From NCBI GenBank assembly GCA_004114245.1, contig QZWS01000167.1, forward strand, positions 1 through 20,004: a DNA stretch of 20,004 nt. Direction: 5' to 3'. This document shows, piece by piece, positions 1-20,004 of the stretch (position 1 is its first letter; each line of letters begins with the position of its first letter). A program made the position numbers and the translations under genes. The notes under the pieces were generated by a model. That model ran no database searches. It saw only the letters and a program-made list of their open reading frames with translations, and was not told the origin of the DNA. The DNA is from Zoopage sp. CT-All (taxonomy: Eukaryota > Zoopagomycota > Zoopagomycetes > Zoopagales > Zoopagaceae).

Positions 1-87
1 GTTGTAGATTTCGTTACGCTTCACTCTATCTCGTATGCTGCGCACATTGTATGTCGCAGTCGTCAGCACATGGAGAGTTTCAAGCAT
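1..87 (-). CDS. LINE ORF2 (endonuclease/reverse transcriptase), first 29 codons only
   Basis: On the minus strand an ATG at 87-85 opens a frame that stays open to the window edge. The peptide runs from MLETLHVLTT into ATYNVRSIRDR and ends in KRNEIYN. The TYNVRS-type segment is the usual beginning of the APE-type endonuclease domain of LINE ORF2 proteins, where the Asn is part of the active site. The ATG overlaps the ORF1 stop in the string ATGCTTGA, so ORF2 is in the +1 frame relative to ORF1. Only this fragment is visible, so domain content beyond the endonuclease start is inferred from the family. Confidence 0.75.
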   Translation of the reverse strand, partial: MLETLHVLTTATYNVRSIRDRVKRNEIYN

Positions 88-1591
88 AATGGTCGGGTGG
101 TGCGCGGATGCGCTTTTGACATTGGTGGGAGCTTATCTGGGCCTGCATGCCCTCGGTGCCATCCAGCAGAGTGTACTTGTTTGTCGTGAGCAAGTTTATG
201 GTCCCTTTGATGAACTGGTCGGGACTCGCACTCCTAGCCGGCTGGACGCTGGGCTGTTCTGATACCTCAGCTTGTTCCGGCACTTCTGAAGCTGCCTCTA
301 GTGCTGGTCCCAGGATTGGCTCTGGGTCCAGTTCTGACTCTGGCGCAGGGGCAAGTTTCGGTGTCATCTCCGGATCCGGGGCTGTCACTATGGCGTCTGC
401 AATGCCAACTTGCTCGTCGATCTTTGCCTCGGGTTTCTTAATTTCCTTCGGCTGAATCTTGGGTGTTTCCTTTCCCTTTGGCTTGTGCTCCATATCAACA
501 GCCTTCTTTCCCGTTCCGTTGGCTTTGACTTGCTGGTGCTTCTTTGGATGCTTGCACTCAGCAATGTAATGCGGTCTGTGGCAATACCAGCAGGTATGGC
601 CAGTGCGCCACAGTAGGCGGATCTTTTGCTCGCCCATTGTCGCGAACTTGGGCCGGTTAACTACAAAGTCAACACACGCGGTGGTGTTCAACAGGATGAT
701 GACGCTGCCGATGAAGAGGTTGGTCGGTTTGTTCCTGACGAGCAGGACTTCCTGGACTGTTGCCCCAGGCACGATATTGTGGAGTGCCTGGCGGACTGCG
801 GAGACCGTGGCCTCCGGCTTGAGAACATTCATGATGGGGATCTCCATGCGGGCGGTGGACTTGTTTGCGGTCTGCAGCGGGGTGACCGGGATTGTGTGGT
901 CGTTGCACTTGAGCCCCGTGCAGCACGCCTTGATTGTGCTTTCCAGAGAGGGAAACGCGACGAGAACGCTCCCGTTCACACCATGGAGCTGTGGTGTGGA
1001 GGTGGGCCAAGCTTCGCGCACAGCCCCGAGGATGTCCTGCGTGGAGACATCCGGCATGTCCCGGTGGATCAGCCCCATGGGCGCCAGCGCGACGTGTTGC
1101 AGCGACGCCAAGAACTTCCAGATCTTCTCCTTGTCGTTATAGATGCCATAGTCCAGCGACTCTGGCGGGAAAAGGGCGGACGTGAGTGCCGGACCATCAT
1201 GTTGCGGACGGTTACTCGGCGCGCGTGGATTGGACCGCCTTCCTGCCATCTCTGCAAAGGTTAGCCTCGGGAGTGGCGGAGGGGTCTGATTGATTGGGTC
1301 GGGTGTATGCGCGGGATTCTCCAGGGCGATGGTCGCCGCGCGAACGCGTCCGGTTGTGAGCGTGGACGCGTGAGAATGCATGTCGGCGCGGGCATCCTGC
1401 GCTGCCCGCGCCTTTCCTTCGATCGTCTTGTCATTTTCTGCCGCTGTTACCATACTTTCGCTAGGCACAGGGATGGCAGCGGCATGAGGGCCGGCAGACG
1501 CAACACTAGCGTGAGCTTGGCGTTGTTTGCTAGTCTGCATGTTTGATGGAGCAGTGGCATCTCTGCGCGGCAACTTTACAACACCTGGCAT
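80..1591 (-). CDS. LINE ORF1, Gag-like RNA-binding protein with zinc knuckle
   Basis: This 503-aa protein has a low-complexity Ala/Pro-rich N-terminus (about residues 1-125), a central globular part (about 135-325) and a single CCHC zinc knuckle at residues 334-346 (C334, C337, H341, C346). A long Lys/Pro/Glu-rich, probably disordered tail follows. In non-LTR elements ORF1 binds the element RNA and forms the ribonucleoprotein used for retrotransposition. The knuckle spacing is C-x2-C-x3-H-x4-C, one residue shorter than the usual x4 between the second Cys and His. The ATG at 1591 is the first in frame; the true start could be elsewhere because the 5' end is undefined. The stop codon at 82-80 overlaps the start of ORF2. 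The assignment rests on the knuckle, the downstream endonuclease-like start and the ORF layout, not on a database match. Confidence 0.85.
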   Translation of the reverse strand: MPGVVKLPRRDATAPSNMQTSKQRQAHASVASAGPHAAAIPVPSESMVTAAENDKTIEGKARAAQDARADMHSHASTLTTGRVRAATIALENPAHTPDPINQTPPPLPRLTFAEMAGRRSNPRAPSNRPQHDGPALTSALFPPESLDYGIYNDKEKIWKFLASLQHVALAPMGLIHRDMPDVSTQDILGAVREAWPTSTPQLHGVNGSVLVAFPSLESTIKACCTGLKCNDHTIPVTPLQTANKSTARMEIPIMNVLKPEATVSAVRQALHNIVPGATVQEVLLVRNKPTNLFIGSVIILLNTTACVDFVVNRPKFATMGEQKIRLLWRTGHTCWYCHRPHYIAECKHPKKHQQVKANGTGKKAVDMEHKPKGKETPKIQPKEIKKPEAKIDEQVGIADAIVTAPDPEMTPKLAPAPESELDPEPILGPALEAASEVPEQAEVSEQPSVQPARSASPDQFIKGTINLLTTNKYTLLDGTEGMQAQISSHQCQKRIRAPPDHYA

Positions 1592-1783
1592 CTGGTGACT
1601 GCCAAGTCTGTAACCGTACCGTCGAGGCGGGAGATAGGGTGGGAGTTAGCACAGTCCTGGATGTCGGGATGTGCTCACGCGTCGGCGGGAGAGATGAATT
1701 GCCGCGCGCCCGGTTTTTTTTGGCCCGAGGATGTCAACAAGCAGGTTTTTGAAATACTAATCTATAATTTCGGAGATATTCAT
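1592..1783. other. Spacer between LINE ORF1 and tRNA gene; probable LINE 5' UTR
   Basis: About 190 bases without a convincing gene. GC-rich sequence resembling the LINE runs to about 1730 and includes an 8-T tract at 1714-1721 (A8 on the LINE sense strand). After about 1740 the sequence becomes AT-rich up to the tRNA gene. The change in composition may mark the LINE 5' boundary, but no target-site duplication can be recognised without the 3' end. Confidence 0.4.
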
Positions 1784-1865
1784 GACACGATGACCGAGTG
1801 GTTAAGGTGCCGCCCTGCTAAGGCGGTTGGCTCTGCCAGCGCAGGTTCGAATCCTGTTCGTGTCG
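1784..1865 (+). tRNA. tRNA-Ser, anticodon GCT (reads AGC/AGT)
   Basis: All arms fold. The 7-bp acceptor stem pairs 1784-1790 with 1858-1864 perfectly, followed by discriminator G1865. The D stem is ACC/GGT (1793-1795 with 1806-1808). The anticodon stem is CCGCC/GGCGG (1810-1814 with 1822-1826), with loop CTGCTAA and anticodon GCT at 1817-1819. A long variable arm (TGGC/GCCA, 1828-1831 with 1835-1838) is typical of tRNA-Ser. The T arm is GCAGG-TTCGAAT-CCTGT with one G-T pair. The A box (TGACCGAGTGG) and B box (GGTTCGAATCC) serve as the internal pol III promoter. There is no intron, and CCA is not encoded, as usual in eukaryotes. Confidence 0.97.
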
Positions 1866-1869
1866 TTTT
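1866..1869 (+). terminator. RNA polymerase III terminator of tRNA-Ser
   Basis: A TTTT run directly follows the discriminator base of the tRNA. Four or more T residues on the sense strand are the standard pol III stop signal. Confidence 0.75.
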
Positions 1870-15753: not shown

Positions 15754-16288
15754 TGTCTCGCGAATATATTTTTTGCGAAGAAAATGTATACTGCATTGCT
15801 GAGTGGTAGCATGGGAAGCAGTGCTATATATATGCGACTGCAGTATTTATGCCTTGGGGAGTGTGACTTGTGCAATGCATGATGTGGTGTCTATTGCGTG
15901 AATCAAGTTAGGAGTTGTGTGATGCCACTTGGTACAAACTATGTTGTCAGAGAAGAGTTAGTAGAGCATTAAGTTGGAGATTCAGACTCTTCATCTGTTG
16001 TTGGATTGTAAAAACTGTAGTTATACTACCAATATTGTGCACACTGGTTGCTTTGTTATATGATAATAGTAAACTAATATATAATAATATGCAGGTAGAC
16101 TGTTTAGCCATTTATAATCCCTATTGCATACTAAGCAGCATAATTACTGACCTCTATTGCAGTTTAATATTTAGATCTTAATGCTGCAATTTATTCAACT
16201 GCATTGCTCCGCTATTGTTCATAGCATCACCATGTGACCTGACAAACCTTGCCACCTTCCGCAGACTTCACAGAACTCCCATAGAATC
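15754..16288. other. AT-rich intergenic region, no supported gene
   Basis: About 535 bases, strikingly AT-rich between 15980 and 16200. The first part holds the probable 3' end of COX6. An 88-codon plus-strand frame (15915-16181) is Cys/Leu/Ile-rich with no recognisable motif and is probably not coding. The last 60 bases (16229-16288) are shared with the upstream flank of the paralogue at 19624 and may be a promoter/5' UTR. Confidence 0.5.
16229..16288 (+). repeat. Conserved 5' flank shared with the paralogue at 19567-19623
   Basis: The bases before the start codon resemble 19567-19623. Both begin ACCATGTG, share CGCAG..CTCA/TTCAC..GAA and end in ATAGAATC directly before ATGAGC. The similarity shows that the duplicated unit includes at least the 5' UTR and perhaps the core promoter. 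Confidence 0.65.
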
Positions 16289-17182
16289 ATGAGCGTCTGC
16301 TACACAATTTACATCATGCTATTTGCCGCTATTGTTGCTAGAAGTGCACGCGTTGAGCCATCCTTTGAATATCCTCTAGTCAAAGGAGATGATTGGGACC
16401 CATTCGACCCTGCTTCCTATGGAATGCCGCCTCTGAGGGACAATCCAGAGCTCTTTCCTTTCAGCAGTATCTCCAATCATGTTAGTGACGACAGGACTTT
16501 GCCACCAACCCCAGCATATCAAGCCACCGTTCTGCAACCTGCTGCCATTCAGCCCGCTGCCATTCAACACGCTGTCAATCACAACCTGGGAGCACCGCCA
16601 GTTCATCCTGCTTTTTATTATGACTCTACTCATTCTACTGCTGCCAGCACAGCCGAGCCTAGCCGTAGTTCCGCTCAACTTGGGGCTAAGCAGGCCGCTG
16701 CAAAGACCCCGCAGGGCATTACAAAACGATCAGAGACTCGTATATCACAAGATGCCACAGCACCACGTTCTGCACTACATTCAAACACCAGCCAAGCCCC
16801 AACAATCCAATCCAAGAATCCCTTTATACCCAAGCCAAAAGCCTCTTATAAGCATAAAGATGGTTCAAAACCCATTGCGAGATCCTCTGCTGTCAGAAGT
16901 GCACGCCATACTGCTTTTGATGCATTGCCTGAGCCAACAAAAGAAGAAATGTGTAGGTACCTGATGAAGGAGGTTACTTGCAAGTATTCGTCGTGCAAAC
17001 TTATTCTAATGTTTGGTAATCTTTGGAATCATTATCAGGTTGATCATGGAGAGCAATATCCCACAAATAGCATCAAATGCCTAACCTGTGGACACCCAGT
17101 GCTAATGAACAGATTTCGCTACGAGCATATGTATGGTACGAAGCATTGGAAGGATTGTGGTGGCGGTGAAGTAGAAATATAG
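16289..17182 (+). CDS. Predicted secreted protein with two C2H2-like zinc fingers (unrecognised family, copy 1)
   Basis: This 297-aa protein starts with a probable signal peptide (MSVCYTIYIMLFAAIVARSA). A Pro/Ala/Ser/His-rich linker follows, containing a small tandem repeat (PAAIQPAAIQHA). A Lys/Arg-rich stretch around residues 175-205 precedes a compact C-terminal domain. There two finger-like motifs can be read: C-x4-C-x11-H-x4-H and C-x2-C-x12-H-x5-H, about 20 residues apart. The order (secretion signal, disordered linker, basic stretch, zinc fingers) would fit a secreted effector or a cell-surface protein. A single-pass membrane anchor or a nuclear protein with a chance hydrophobic start cannot be excluded. 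It sits in an AT-rich island with codon use poorer in GC than its neighbours. A paralogue begins at 19624. I do not recognise the family. Confidence 0.75.
   Translation: MSVCYTIYIMLFAAIVARSARVEPSFEYPLVKGDDWDPFDPASYGMPPLRDNPELFPFSSISNHVSDDRTLPPTPAYQATVLQPAAIQPAAIQHAVNHNLGAPPVHPAFYYDSTHSTAASTAEPSRSSAQLGAKQAAAKTPQGITKRSETRISQDATAPRSALHSNTSQAPTIQSKNPFIPKPKASYKHKDGSKPIARSSAVRSARHTAFDALPEPTKEEMCRYLMKEVTCKYSSCKLILMFGNLWNHYQVDHGEQYPTNSIKCLTCGHPVLMNRFRYEHMYGTKHWKDCGGGEVEI
16532..16571 (+). repeat. Short tandem repeat in the secreted protein gene (15-bp unit)
   Basis: Two and a half copies of a 15-base unit (CCTGCTGCCATTCAG, CCCGCTGCCATTCAA, then a decayed CACGCTGTCAATCAC) encode PAAIQPAAIQHAVNH. The paralogue at 19624 has a single QPVANH at the equivalent place, so the expansion happened in this copy or was lost in the other. 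Confidence 0.7.
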
Positions 17183-17514
17183 GTTGTGCTGGCGTAAATC
17201 ACAAGCACATTGAATATCTTATTTCTCCAGCCATTATAACTTGAGGCTGTTCTTTGCCAAGGTGGAATTTGAAGTGAAGCAACCATCTGAGCCAAGTACT
17301 TCAGGTCAAGGGAATGTAAACAAGCTTGTTTATAAGACCACTTGCATAACTATTATGACATTATTATATGCACGGGACTGCTTGACCACTTCTATATTGA
17401 ATTGCATTGCTTTGGCAATGCCGCGTCTGCTGGGCTACAACGTAAAGTCCAACTGACTGGCAAATTCACGCTGGCTGCTGGTCTTGACTGCTTCGATGCC
17501 TTGTTGCCAACTCC
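17183..17514. other. AT-rich spacer before the sirtuin gene
   Basis: A 332-base stretch with no supported gene. It holds the probable 3' UTR of the secreted protein gene and the sirtuin promoter region. Short frames (17241-17456) show no motif. Confidence 0.5.
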
Positions 17515-18975
17515 ATGTTGGGCCATGCTGATTCAGTCCCGACCAGCGCCGCATCCATCAGCTCCATGCACATATCCACAGACGATGGCGATCCCTGCCC
17601 CTCGGGTGCTACTGTCACGATCGCCCAACACTCGTCCGGCACTGCCTTCTCGCCTCCTGCATCATTCATTCCTGCCCTGCCTCAACCTTCCTCCCGCGGC
17701 CGCCAGCAGCCATGCCCGCCGAACTCATCTAGTAGCATCTCCAGCACAGCGTCCAATATATCCGCTGCATCATCGCGCCCGCCACCACGCGAGCGCCACG
17801 CCCTCACGCCCGCCCAACTCCGCACACGATTCCCGGACCGCGCTATCCTCCAGTCCGGGTCCCTTGCATCCCTCGTTGATTGGTGGCAGACCTCAAATGG
17901 AGGCCATGGGCCGCAGAGGATTATTGTGATGTGCGGCGCGGGGGTATCCACCGCCGCGGGGATCCCCGACTTTCGGTCGCCTGGCACCGGGCTCTACTCA
18001 AACCTCGCTAAATTTGATCTTCCCTACGCCGAAGCCATCTTCGATGTTGACTACTTCCGGGAAAAGCCAGAGGCGTTCTACGCGTTGGCGCGAGAGCTCT
18101 ACCCGGGGCAATTCAAGCCCACACTGTCACACTACTTCATACGGCTGCTGTCCGAGAAGGGGCGATTGCTGCGGCTCTATACCCAAAACATTGATACCCT
18201 GGAGCGCGTCGCTGGAATCACCGAAGACGTGCTCGTGGAGGCCCATGGATCATTCCACCGTGCCGCCTGTATTGACTGCAAGGCAGACCAGGACACAGAG
18301 TACGTGCGTGCCCGGATCCTCGCTGGTGCGATTCCGCGGTGCACGGCCTGCCTCCACGGCTGCGTGAAACCATGCATCACGTTCTTTGGCGAATCTCTTC
18401 CGCAGCGCTACCACGACATGTCTACCGTGGACTTCAAAAAATGCGATCTTCTCATCGTCATGGGAACATCCCTTAAAGTTCATCCATTTGCATCGCTCAT
18501 CGACGCCGTTGGAAGAAAGACCCCCCGGTTACTCGTAAACCGCGAGATCGTTGGGGTGCGCAACCTGGCACGGTTCGGGTTTGATTTTGATGGCTCCGTG
18601 GCAAAATATCGGCGTGATGCGGTATACCAAGGTTCGTGCGATGACGGGGTCCGAGAGCTGACACGGCTGCTTGGGTGGGAGGATGAGTTGGTCGAGTTAT
18701 GGCGGCGCGATCATGCTAGGATTGATGAGAGAGTGGAAGGGACCGTGGTTGAAGGTGAGTTTGGTAATAAGGCGGCGGTAGATGCTGGAGTGGGGAGTGA
18801 CGAGTTACTGGCAGCAATGCTCGAGAGAGTGCATCTCGTGGCAGACCATGTGCCGATCAATGAGGTCGCACCGGGCAAAGACGTGATCGAAGCGAGTGCT
18901 GCAGCAGATACGGTAAAAAGTAGCGATCTGGAACGTGGACATGCGGAGGTAAGAATTACTGGAACGGAAGTCTAG
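17515..18975 (+). CDS. NAD-dependent protein deacylase, class I sirtuin (Hst2/SIRT2-like)
   Basis: The 486-aa protein has a complete Sir2 core from about residue 130 to 375. The core shows the NAD-binding GAGVSTAAGIPDFRSPGTGLY (from G141), TQNIDTLERVAG, catalytic H244 in EAHGSFH, and a structural zinc site of four Cys (C252, C255, C276, C279). Further landmarks are KPCITFFGESLP, VMGTSLKVHPFA and LLVNRE. Class I sirtuins remove acetyl groups from histones and other proteins. The core pattern is closest to the cytosolic/nuclear Hst2-SIRT2 subgroup by eye. The first ~95 residues are Ser/Pro-rich and probably disordered, so the true start could be an in-frame internal ATG such as the Met of MHISTDDGD. 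The last ~110 residues are acidic and not conserved. It is intronless and lies between the two secreted zinc-finger paralogues. Confidence 0.95.
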   Translation: MLGHADSVPTSAASISSMHISTDDGDPCPSGATVTIAQHSSGTAFSPPASFIPALPQPSSRGRQQPCPPNSSSSISSTASNISAASSRPPPRERHALTPAQLRTRFPDRAILQSGSLASLVDWWQTSNGGHGPQRIIVMCGAGVSTAAGIPDFRSPGTGLYSNLAKFDLPYAEAIFDVDYFREKPEAFYALARELYPGQFKPTLSHYFIRLLSEKGRLLRLYTQNIDTLERVAGITEDVLVEAHGSFHRAACIDCKADQDTEYVRARILAGAIPRCTACLHGCVKPCITFFGESLPQRYHDMSTVDFKKCDLLIVMGTSLKVHPFASLIDAVGRKTPRLLVNREIVGVRNLARFGFDFDGSVAKYRRDAVYQGSCDDGVRELTRLLGWEDELVELWRRDHARIDERVEGTVVEGEFGNKAAVDAGVGSDELLAAMLERVHLVADHVPINEVAPGKDVIEASAAADTVKSSDLERGHAEVRITGTEV

Positions 18976-19478
18976 ACAAAGGAGTACACGATGTAATGCT
19001 GTCCATATATAAATCAAGCAAGTTGTCGGTTTGTAATATAGCCATTCATAGCAGCCACTGAATGATGAGCATCATCACGAATCTGACAGAAATCAGAGAC
19101 AAGGATCAGAGATGGTAGAAATAATTTCAGCAAGGGGAGATTGAGTGTATTGGCTCAACACTGGTATTAGCATAGCAGAGGGAAAAGAAAATATCCTTGG
19201 AACCAGGCTGAGTAGCAGCTGCTTGCATAAACCTGTGAGCCTTTCTGTTGATATCACCATCACCCTGCCATTGCTGGGAAAGACTACATACAGCATACAA
19301 GGATTGATCATATAGTCTGCAGAATAGAGATATTTCTACTTTACTGTCAGGTATGCATCCTCACACTATCTGCCTGCAGGGATGTGGTCAAAGTTGGTGT
19401 CCATGTATTGTCATTTGCTAGTTTAGATTACAAGAGAAGTGAGAAAAAGCACGAGGATAAAGCATGGTTGCTCATTGC

Positions 19479-19548
19479 CAGGGGTGTTTATTTTAGGCGC
19501 CTGCTTTCATTATTCAAAAGAACCAAGCGCCTAAAATAAGCACCCTTG
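19479..19548. repeat. 25-bp inverted repeat (hairpin), 20-base loop
   Basis: The left arm 19479-19503 and the right arm 19524-19548 are reverse complements at 22 of 25 positions. The core of each arm is TATTTTAGGCGC and its complement. The three mismatches are all transitions, so in one transcribed strand they would become G-U pairs. It ends 76 bases before the start codon of the downstream gene. It could be a small foldback/MITE-like element, a cruciform or a regulatory hairpin. Confidence 0.8.
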
Positions 19549-19550
19549 TT

Positions 19551-19556
19551 TATATA
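19551..19556 (+). promoter_or_regulatory. TATA box upstream of the second secreted-protein gene
   Basis: TATATA lies 68 bases before the start codon at 19624 and directly after the inverted repeat. The distance suits a fungal core promoter, but the call rests on sequence and position only. Confidence 0.45.
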
Positions 19557-19566
19557 GACTGGCCTG

Positions 19567-19623
19567 ACCATGTGGCAACCTTTGGCATATTTGCGCAGCC
19601 CTCACCGAAACTCCAATAGAATC
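19567..19623 (+). repeat. Conserved 5' flank, second copy
   Basis: Matches 16229-16288 upstream of the first paralogue, from ACCATGTG to ATAGAATC, with several small insertions or deletions. Confidence 0.65.
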
Positions 19624-20004
19624 ATGAGCATCCGTCACACACTTTTCATCATCGTATTTGCCGCCGTTGCCGCCAGAAGCGCACGCATTGAGTCAATCTT
19701 TGATTATCCTCCAGGCAAAAGAGATGATTGTCGTGGCATGTACGAGGACGAGTATTGGCGGATAATTGATGCTACCCTCGGATTGCCACATCCGCGTATC
19801 AACCAGGGGCACTCTCATTTCAGCAATAACGCCGATCTTGGTGGTGATGACAGGGCTTTGCCACCGCCCCTACCACAAGCCACCGCCCCACAGCCTGTTG
19901 CCAATCACAACCCGGGATCACCGCCAATTCTTCCTTCCCTTTGTGATGACACTCCTTGGTCCACTGTTGACAGTGCACCCGAGCGTAGCCGTAGTTCCGC
20001 TCGA
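19624..20004 (+). CDS. Predicted secreted protein, paralogue of the gene at 16289 (cut by window end)
   Basis: An ATG at 19624 opens 127 codons that run off the window. The N-terminus MSIRHTLFIIVFAAVAARSA is a better signal peptide than that of copy 1 and shares FAA-x-x-ARSAR-[VI]-E with it. Further shared blocks are FDYP/FEYP, DDRALPP/DDRTLPP, VANHNPGSPP/VNHNLGAPP and the final ERSRSSA/EPSRSSA. Copy 2 has an insertion of about 20 residues (around Met-Tyr-Glu-Asp) and lacks the PAAIQ repeat. The zinc-finger part would lie beyond the window; its presence is inferred from copy 1. The two copies flank the sirtuin gene as direct repeats about 3.3 kb apart. Confidence 0.8.
   Translation, partial: MSIRHTLFIIVFAAVAARSARIESIFDYPPGKRDDCRGMYEDEYWRIIDATLGLPHPRINQGHSHFSNNADLGGDDRALPPPLPQATAPQPVANHNPGSPPILPSLCDDTPWSTVDSAPERSRSSAR

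What the first reader, a model, noticed from the sequence alone, without database searches (positions are those of the whole stretch)
16289..20004. Paralogue pair of secreted proteins with C-terminal zinc fingers flanking the sirtuin gene
Seen: two plus-strand ORFs share a signal-peptide-like start (FAA-x-x-ARSAR-[VI]-E), several linker blocks and ~60 bp of 5' flank. The complete copy ends in two C2H2-like motifs (C-x4-C-x11-H-x4-H and C-x2-C-x12-H-x5-H) after a Lys/Arg-rich stretch. Known: C2H2 fingers are normally intracellular, so pairing them with a secretion signal is unusual; some effectors of host-associated microbes are secreted and act in host nuclei. Inference: this may be a lineage-specific, expanding effector-like or surface family in AT-rich islands between core genes.
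Basis: partly seen in the sequence, partly recalled or inferred. Interest (0 to 1): 0.8.

Follow-up and report, generated by a model that had tools for sequence, protein, structure and literature searches.

The report
Secreted fast-evolving zinc-finger protein family
A little-known fungus carries dozens of related genes for apparently secreted proteins that end in paired zinc fingers, in which the zinc-binding residues never change while much of the rest changes very fast, as expected of proteins sent out to act on another organism.

Summary
ORF A (16289-17182) ends in C-x4-C-x11-H-x4-H and C-x2-C-x12-H-x5-H; ORF B (19624-20004, cut by the contig end) is its paralogue over residues 1-130. Both belong to a large family: 49 match clusters on 40 of 419 contigs. 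In 41 aligned finger modules, 16-55% identical to ORF A, the only invariant columns are the eight zinc ligands. The module is modelled as two helices plus two beta-beta-alpha fingers (pLDDT 90). N-termini share a signal-peptide-like segment, and 15 of 25 upstreams an E-box-like element. Codon models give module omega 1.20, 1.69 and 1.22 in three subfamilies (the first not significant), with no amino-acid change at ligand codons. Two searches of 5.8 billion proteins found no homologue, though zoopagomycete proteins are held there. A one-gene tree places the organism near Ramicandelaber and Zoopagales. Best reading: a lineage-specific family of secreted effector-like proteins that fold with zinc inside another organism's cells and there bind nucleic acid or nuclear proteins. 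Secretion, host entry, nuclear targeting and DNA binding are inferred, not shown.

The parts
16289..17182 (+). ORF A, 297 aa, complete family member in one open frame
16289..16363 (+). signal-peptide-like N-terminus of ORF A (residues 1-25)
   Evidence: 27 family N-termini listed side by side; hydropathy and cleavage score
16364..16714 (+). variable Pro/Gln/Ser/Thr-rich linker of ORF A
16715..16729 (+). GITKR: copy of the family G-I-x-K motif that begins the basic stretch
16865..17179 (+). C-terminal module of ORF A: two helices plus two beta-beta-alpha zinc fingers (residues 193-297)
   Evidence: A2 alignment, AlphaFold2 model pLDDT 90
16979..17047 (+). finger 1, C231-x4-C236-x11-H248-x4-H253
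   Evidence: invariant ligands
17078..17146 (+). finger 2, C264-x2-C267-x12-H280-x5-H286
   Evidence: invariant ligands
16229..16236 (+). ACCATGTG, E-box-like element 60 bp before ORF A
19567..19574 (+). ACCATGTG, E-box-like element 57 bp before ORF B
19624..20004 (+). ORF B, second family member, cut by the contig end before any finger module
19624..19698 (+). signal-peptide-like N-terminus of ORF B

Best explanation
ORFs A and B belong to a large, lineage-specific family of secreted, effector-like proteins of a zoopagomycete-like fungus. Proposed path: the N-terminal signal peptide sends the protein through the ER and is removed; the low-complexity linker is a flexible spacer; the basic stretch that begins at the G-I-x-K motif and the two-helix, two-finger module form the working part. 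The module takes up zinc in a reducing compartment (cytosol or nucleus of a host or prey cell) and there binds nucleic acid or chromatin-associated protein through its fast-changing exposed surface. The genes turn over by duplication and decay and are probably switched on together through a shared E-box-like element. Shown by computation: multicopy family, shared architecture, invariant ligands, confident fold model, elevated omega, shared promoter box. Inferred: real secretion, uptake by another cell, nuclear targeting, nucleic-acid binding, effect on a host.
For: 49 match clusters on 40 of 419 contigs, a lower bound because the family sits at assembly breaks: of the 33 clusters whose contig length I had, 16 lie within 1 kb of a contig end, about 3.6 expected. 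The eight ligands are the only invariant columns in 41 modules and again in 42; 0 nonsynonymous changes over 363 nonsynonymous ligand sites in 17 module pairs, against pS 0.40 there. AlphaFold2: two helices plus two beta-beta-alpha fingers in ORF A (pLDDT 90), and the same layout in a distant two-module member (pLDDT 80.5, pTM 0.43). 24 of 38 module ORFs carry the signal-peptide-like segment in the same ORF. Hydrophobic-core score passed by 26 of 27 family N-termini against 0 of 29 other mechanical window ORFs. Searches with the N-terminal segment gave loci of this family and contig-end pieces, with no fusion to another recognised domain. Module omega 1.20/1.69/1.22 (2dlnL against omega=1: 2.0, 10.1, 4.0); without ligand codons 1.45/2.09/1.50 (7.4, 18.2, 15.3); signal-peptide codons 0.75. 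E-box-like ACCAYGYG at -40 to -65 in 15 of 25 upstreams. Invariant His beside invariant Cys point to zinc rather than disulfides (inference). Precedent: MoHTR1/2 of Magnaporthe, secreted C2H2 proteins that enter host nuclei (PMC7672089, passages).
Against: NLS-like patterns in only 14 of 24 SP-plus-module ORFs, with no background control. Pairwise pN/pS of 17 module pairs is 1.02 (bootstrap 0.85-1.20), not above 1; 6 of 10 module pairs have ratios below 1 (0.69-0.99); subfamily 1 with all codons is not significant. Change at the four classical base-contact helix positions is only suggestively raised (P 0.063). One locus (C288) has the signal segment and linker but a stop before any module in the 1.2 kb read. 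Finger 1 and the 10-residue spacer depart from classical DNA-binding arrays. Host, lifestyle and expression are unknown.
Confidence: 0.55

Rival explanations
1. The proteins are secreted but work outside cells: zinc carriers, cell-wall or surface proteins, or weapons against other microbes.
For: Signal-peptide-like N-terminus, Pro/Gln/Ser/Thr-rich linker, invariant zinc ligands; diversification fits microbial competition too.
Against: A module kept as two modelled beta-beta-alpha fingers with a Lys/Arg-rich approach (25% K/R against 7% in the linker) and fast change at exposed helix positions is more than zinc capture needs (inference). No second membrane segment by hydropathy after residue 30 in the 25 members printed.
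Confidence: 0.2
2. The hydrophobic N-terminus does not lead to export: the proteins stay in the fungus (membrane-tethered or internal regulators, e.g. of recognition or mating) and use the fingers on its own DNA.
For: C2H2 fingers are usually intracellular (established knowledge); the closest solved chains by profile are nuclear fingers such as CTCF; a co-regulated family could be internal regulators; the cleavage score fails for 8 of 27 N-termini.
Against: The hydrophobic core is short (about 11-12 residues by eye) and followed by V-x-A-S in 17 of 27 N-termini, as in cleaved signal peptides; module omega at or above 1 is unusual for a fungus's own regulators (inference).
Confidence: 0.15
3. 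The family is a mobile or selfish element, or a relic of one, spreading through the genome.
For: Dispersed copies, degraded copies with stops, position at assembly breaks.
Against: 24 ORFs keep signal segment and module in one frame and ligands are under strict constraint. No transposase, integrase or phage-family match among the members scanned (Pfam: ORFs A and B, and 19 members at E <= 0.01; PHROGs: three members). Terminal repeats around copies were not searched for.
Confidence: 0.05

Closest known systems
MoHTR1/MoHTR2, nuclear effectors of Magnaporthe oryzae (PMC7672089, passages read)
   Same: Secretion signal plus C2H2 zinc finger with basic residues around it in a fungal protein.
   Different: In the passages read, the MoHTR1/2 C2H2 domain is compared with the single finger of GAGA; here a helix-helix-finger-finger module, single or doubled, in about 50 diversifying loci of an unrelated fungus. 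Sequence relation to MoHTR1/2 was not tested directly.
Classical tandem C2H2 fingers (TFIIIA/Kruppel type; CTCF best in the PDB search with an 18-module profile, E 2.6e-5)
   Same: beta-beta-alpha fold in the model; in subfamilies 1 and 2 a Leu three residues before the first His of finger 1; S-G-Q-K-P-like spacer in some members.
   Different: 11 residues between Cys and His in most finger 1 copies, 10-residue spacer in all 45 complete modules, 5 or 6 residues between the last two His; ORF A has no Pfam zinc-finger match above cut-off.
U1-like/matrin-type fingers (C-x2-C-x12-H-x5-H, definition recalled)
   Same: Finger 2 of ORF A has this spacing.
   Different: No match to such a Pfam family appeared in the lists seen (one search shows 25 of 75 families); finger 1 differs; finger 2 of most members has 11 residues between Cys and His.

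Membership tests
Secreted fungal nuclear C2H2 effectors (MoHTR type) | N-terminal signal peptide | tested here: inconclusive
   19 of 27 N-termini pass both heuristic scores against 0 of 29 control ORFs; matrix recalled, SignalP not available
Secreted fungal nuclear C2H2 effectors (MoHTR type) | C2H2 zinc-finger domain | tested here: met
Secreted fungal nuclear C2H2 effectors (MoHTR type) | nuclear localisation signal | tested here: inconclusive
   regex hit in 14 of 24, no control
Secreted fungal nuclear C2H2 effectors (MoHTR type) | translocation into host nuclei and control of host genes | not testable with these tools
   needs expression and microscopy
Secreted fungal nuclear C2H2 effectors (MoHTR type) | sequence homology to MoHTR1/2 | not tested
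   no direct comparison made; database searches with the family returned nothing
Classical tandem C2H2 fingers | four conserved zinc ligands in a beta-beta-alpha fold per finger | tested here: met
Classical tandem C2H2 fingers | seven-residue TGEKP-type linker between fingers (definition recalled) | tested here: not met
   10 residues in 45 of 45 complete modules
Classical tandem C2H2 fingers | Pfam match above the curated cut-off | tested here: not met
   ORF A: only DUF7559, 15 bits against cut-off 27. Other members have weak zinc-finger matches (e.g. Sina_ZnF 7.9e-05 in 1 of 19, CEP104_ZnF in 3 of 19; their cut-offs were not shown)
U1-like/matrin-type fingers | C-x2-C-x12-H-x5-H spacing (recalled) | tested here: inconclusive
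   finger 2 of ORF A has it; most members have x11 there

The most novel reading that the evidence does not exclude
An early-diverging fungus has built a large arsenal of secreted two-finger proteins that enter host or prey nuclei and bind nucleic acid, with recognition surfaces under diversifying selection on an invariant zinc scaffold: a eukaryotic, zinc-finger counterpart of the TAL-effector idea.
Probability: 0.3. Interest if true: 0.9.

Novelty: new variant of a known kind. Interest (0 to 1): 0.72.

Why it matters
Zoopagomycota are mostly parasites or pathogens of animals and fungi (PMC10386755, passages), and in the listings of two searches on their effectors I saw no described effector family of this kind. 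A diversifying family on an invariant zinc scaffold gives a ready set of natural variants to test whether secreted zinc fingers read host nucleic acid, and which residues decide it.

Tried and rejected
Considered and rejected: artefact of low complexity (ligands invariant, fold model confident); recent tandem duplication of A and B (B is closer to a C87 copy); Kex2-type processing as the reason for the G-I-x-K-R motif (no KR there in the C274/C318 subfamily); a modular N-terminus fused to other domains (searches gave loci of this family and contig-end pieces; C288 ends in the linker).

Rows dropped or chosen: A2 holds 41 of the 42 long modules (a near-identical C251 copy left out). Omega used 36 of 42 modules in three subfamilies; six (C379, C365, C324, C240, two of C86) were left out. 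The 27 N-termini were picked by a motif, and two were scored without their Met. One ORF, ORF A itself, was removed from the control set. The upstream test used 25 members with a located start and 110 bp upstream; C403 was dropped and near-identical C4 and C251 both counted. The tree used 37 of the 120 listed sirtuins.
Full report
What is there. The window is the whole contig C415 of an 8.62-Mb, 419-contig assembly. By Pfam it carries a GH18 protein, ankyrin repeats, an M3 peptidase, COX5A and a sirtuin.

A large family. Own-genome searches with ORF A and five other members, plus two N-terminal peptides, give 49 match clusters on 40 of 419 contigs (matches at E <= 0.01 except one, on C266, at 0.029). 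Several clusters hold more than one gene; others are degraded, with internal stops (C305, C397, C143, C112) or a frame change (C365). C288 has the signal segment and linker, then a stop, and no module in the 1.2 kb read. Of the 33 clusters whose contig length I had, 16 lie within 1 kb of a contig end against about 3.6 expected, so the family breaks the assembly and the count is a lower bound.

Architecture. A signal-peptide-like start (consensus M-x-I-R-x-x-I-C-I-x-L-F-A-A-I-x-A-x-x-A-x-V-E-A-S-S over 19 members), a variable linker rich in P, Q, S and T, a G-I-x-K motif in 21 of 24 SP-plus-module ORFs that begins a basic stretch (25% K/R against 7% in the linker), and one or two C-terminal modules. 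A profile search of the fetched loci found 51 modules or pieces in 38 ORFs; 45 carry all eight ligands, always with 10 residues between the fingers; the six others are incomplete (one at a contig end, two at the end of the fetched stretch, two halves of the frame-changed C365 copy, one short piece). The matching pattern allowed ranges of spacing. In a 41-module alignment (16-55% identity to ORF A) the eight ligands are the only invariant columns; with all 42 long modules the result is the same. AlphaFold2 models ORF A's module as two helices and two beta-beta-alpha fingers (pLDDT 90, pTM 0.76); a two-module member repeats the layout (pLDDT 80.5, pTM 0.43).

Secretion. No SignalP was available. 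A cleavage score (matrix recalled) above 3.5 together with a hydrophobic 11-residue core was met by 19 of 27 family N-termini and 0 of 29 other mechanical ORFs of the window; the hydrophobic core alone by 26 of 27 against 0 of 29; the cleavage score alone was also passed by 5 of 29 controls and 18% of shuffles. The 27 were picked by a motif, so this is not an unbiased sample. V-x-A-S follows the core in 17 of 27, but the best-scoring site often lies a few residues earlier. Of 38 module ORFs, 24 include the segment. The other 14 are, by their coordinates, cut by a contig end, separated from upstream family sequence by a stop or frame change, or short pieces.

Selection. Over 17 independent module pairs, non-ligand codons have pN 0.210 and pS 0.205 (ratio 1.02, bootstrap 0.85-1.20), while ligand codons have no nonsynonymous change (363 sites) and pS 0.40 (45 sites). 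Maximum-likelihood codon models give omega 1.20, 1.69 and 1.22 in three subfamilies of 10, 7 and 19 modules (2dlnL against omega = 1: 2.0, 10.1, 4.0), 1.45, 2.09 and 1.50 without ligand codons (7.4, 18.2, 15.3), and 0.75 for the signal-peptide codons (2.2); 12 alignments each simulated at omega = 1 gave 0.77-0.99, 0.84-1.34 and 0.94-1.19. Subfamily 1 with all codons is thus not significant by likelihood, and leaving out invariant codons raises omega by construction. In one search, 6 of 10 module pairs have ratios below 1 (0.69-0.99) and 4 above (1.30-1.66). The residue just before the first His of each finger is among the fastest (pN 0.46 and 0.50), but the four classical contact positions as a group are only suggestive (P 0.063). 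So the firm statement is: no net purifying constraint outside the ligands and core, and evidence for diversification in subfamilies 2 and 3.

Regulation. ACCAYGYG lies 40-65 bp before the ATG in 15 of 25 upstreams; background 0.009 per 103 nt. The pattern was chosen after looking and the genes are related, so the printed P overstates it.

Kinship. No homologue at E <= 10 in 5.8 billion proteins with ORF A (1364 candidates scored) or with a 19-member alignment (the 7995 candidates sharing most words scored). That search needs shared 5-residue words and similar length, so remote kin can be missed. The same database returns sirtuins of Thamnocephalis, Syncephalis, Piptocephalis, Dimargaris, Ramicandelaber, Coemansia and Basidiobolus. 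None by sequence in PDB for ORF A, in PHROGs for three members, or in viral contigs and genome contigs for ORF A. The profile of 18 modules matches generic C2H2 chains weakly (CTCF 2.6e-5). A 38-row sirtuin tree puts the window next to Ramicandelaber (95/83), in a group with Zoopagales and, oddly, Paraphysoderma (87/82), while Dimargaritales and Coemansia fall elsewhere; one gene, so provisional.

Mechanism. The invariant Cys and His indicate zinc, which argues for a reducing workplace; the signal-peptide-like start indicates export. Both fit if the working place is inside another cell (inference). Precedents exist for secreted fungal proteins that act on DNA in host nuclei (PMC7672089, passages; PMC10728069, passages; PMC12886408, one passage). 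Zoopagomycota are mostly parasites or pathogens of animals and fungi (PMC10386755, passages), but this organism's lifestyle is unknown. In the listings and abstract openings of eight searches of the open-licence library I saw no described family of this kind; most of those papers were not read.

Verdict. A real, large, fast-evolving, apparently secreted zinc-finger family; effector-like function is the best reading at moderate confidence.

Noticed in passing
window 19479-19548: A 70-bp inverted-repeat element (28-nt arms, 86% complementary) just upstream of ORF B; 57 matches in the genome, both strands counted, from 35 candidates: MITE-like.
   Followed up: partly
window 80-1591 (-): 503-aa ORF with a CCHC zinc-knuckle-like motif (read by eye), a repeated element: 7 further matches, one full-length at 94% on C11 with one stop, three at contig starts.
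   Followed up: partly
window 1783-1866 (+): tRNA-Ser (gct) gene.
   Followed up: no
upstreams of 25 family members: A shared leader just before the ATG, with a C at -10 in 25 of 25, besides the E-box-like element.
   Followed up: partly
L011:3500-5728 (-): A 742-aa family member with two finger modules and a long N/Q/A/H-rich repeat array in its linker.
   Followed up: no
L063:230-830 (+), contig C288: Family signal segment and linker ending in a stop, with no finger module found in the 1.2 kb read.
   Followed up: partly
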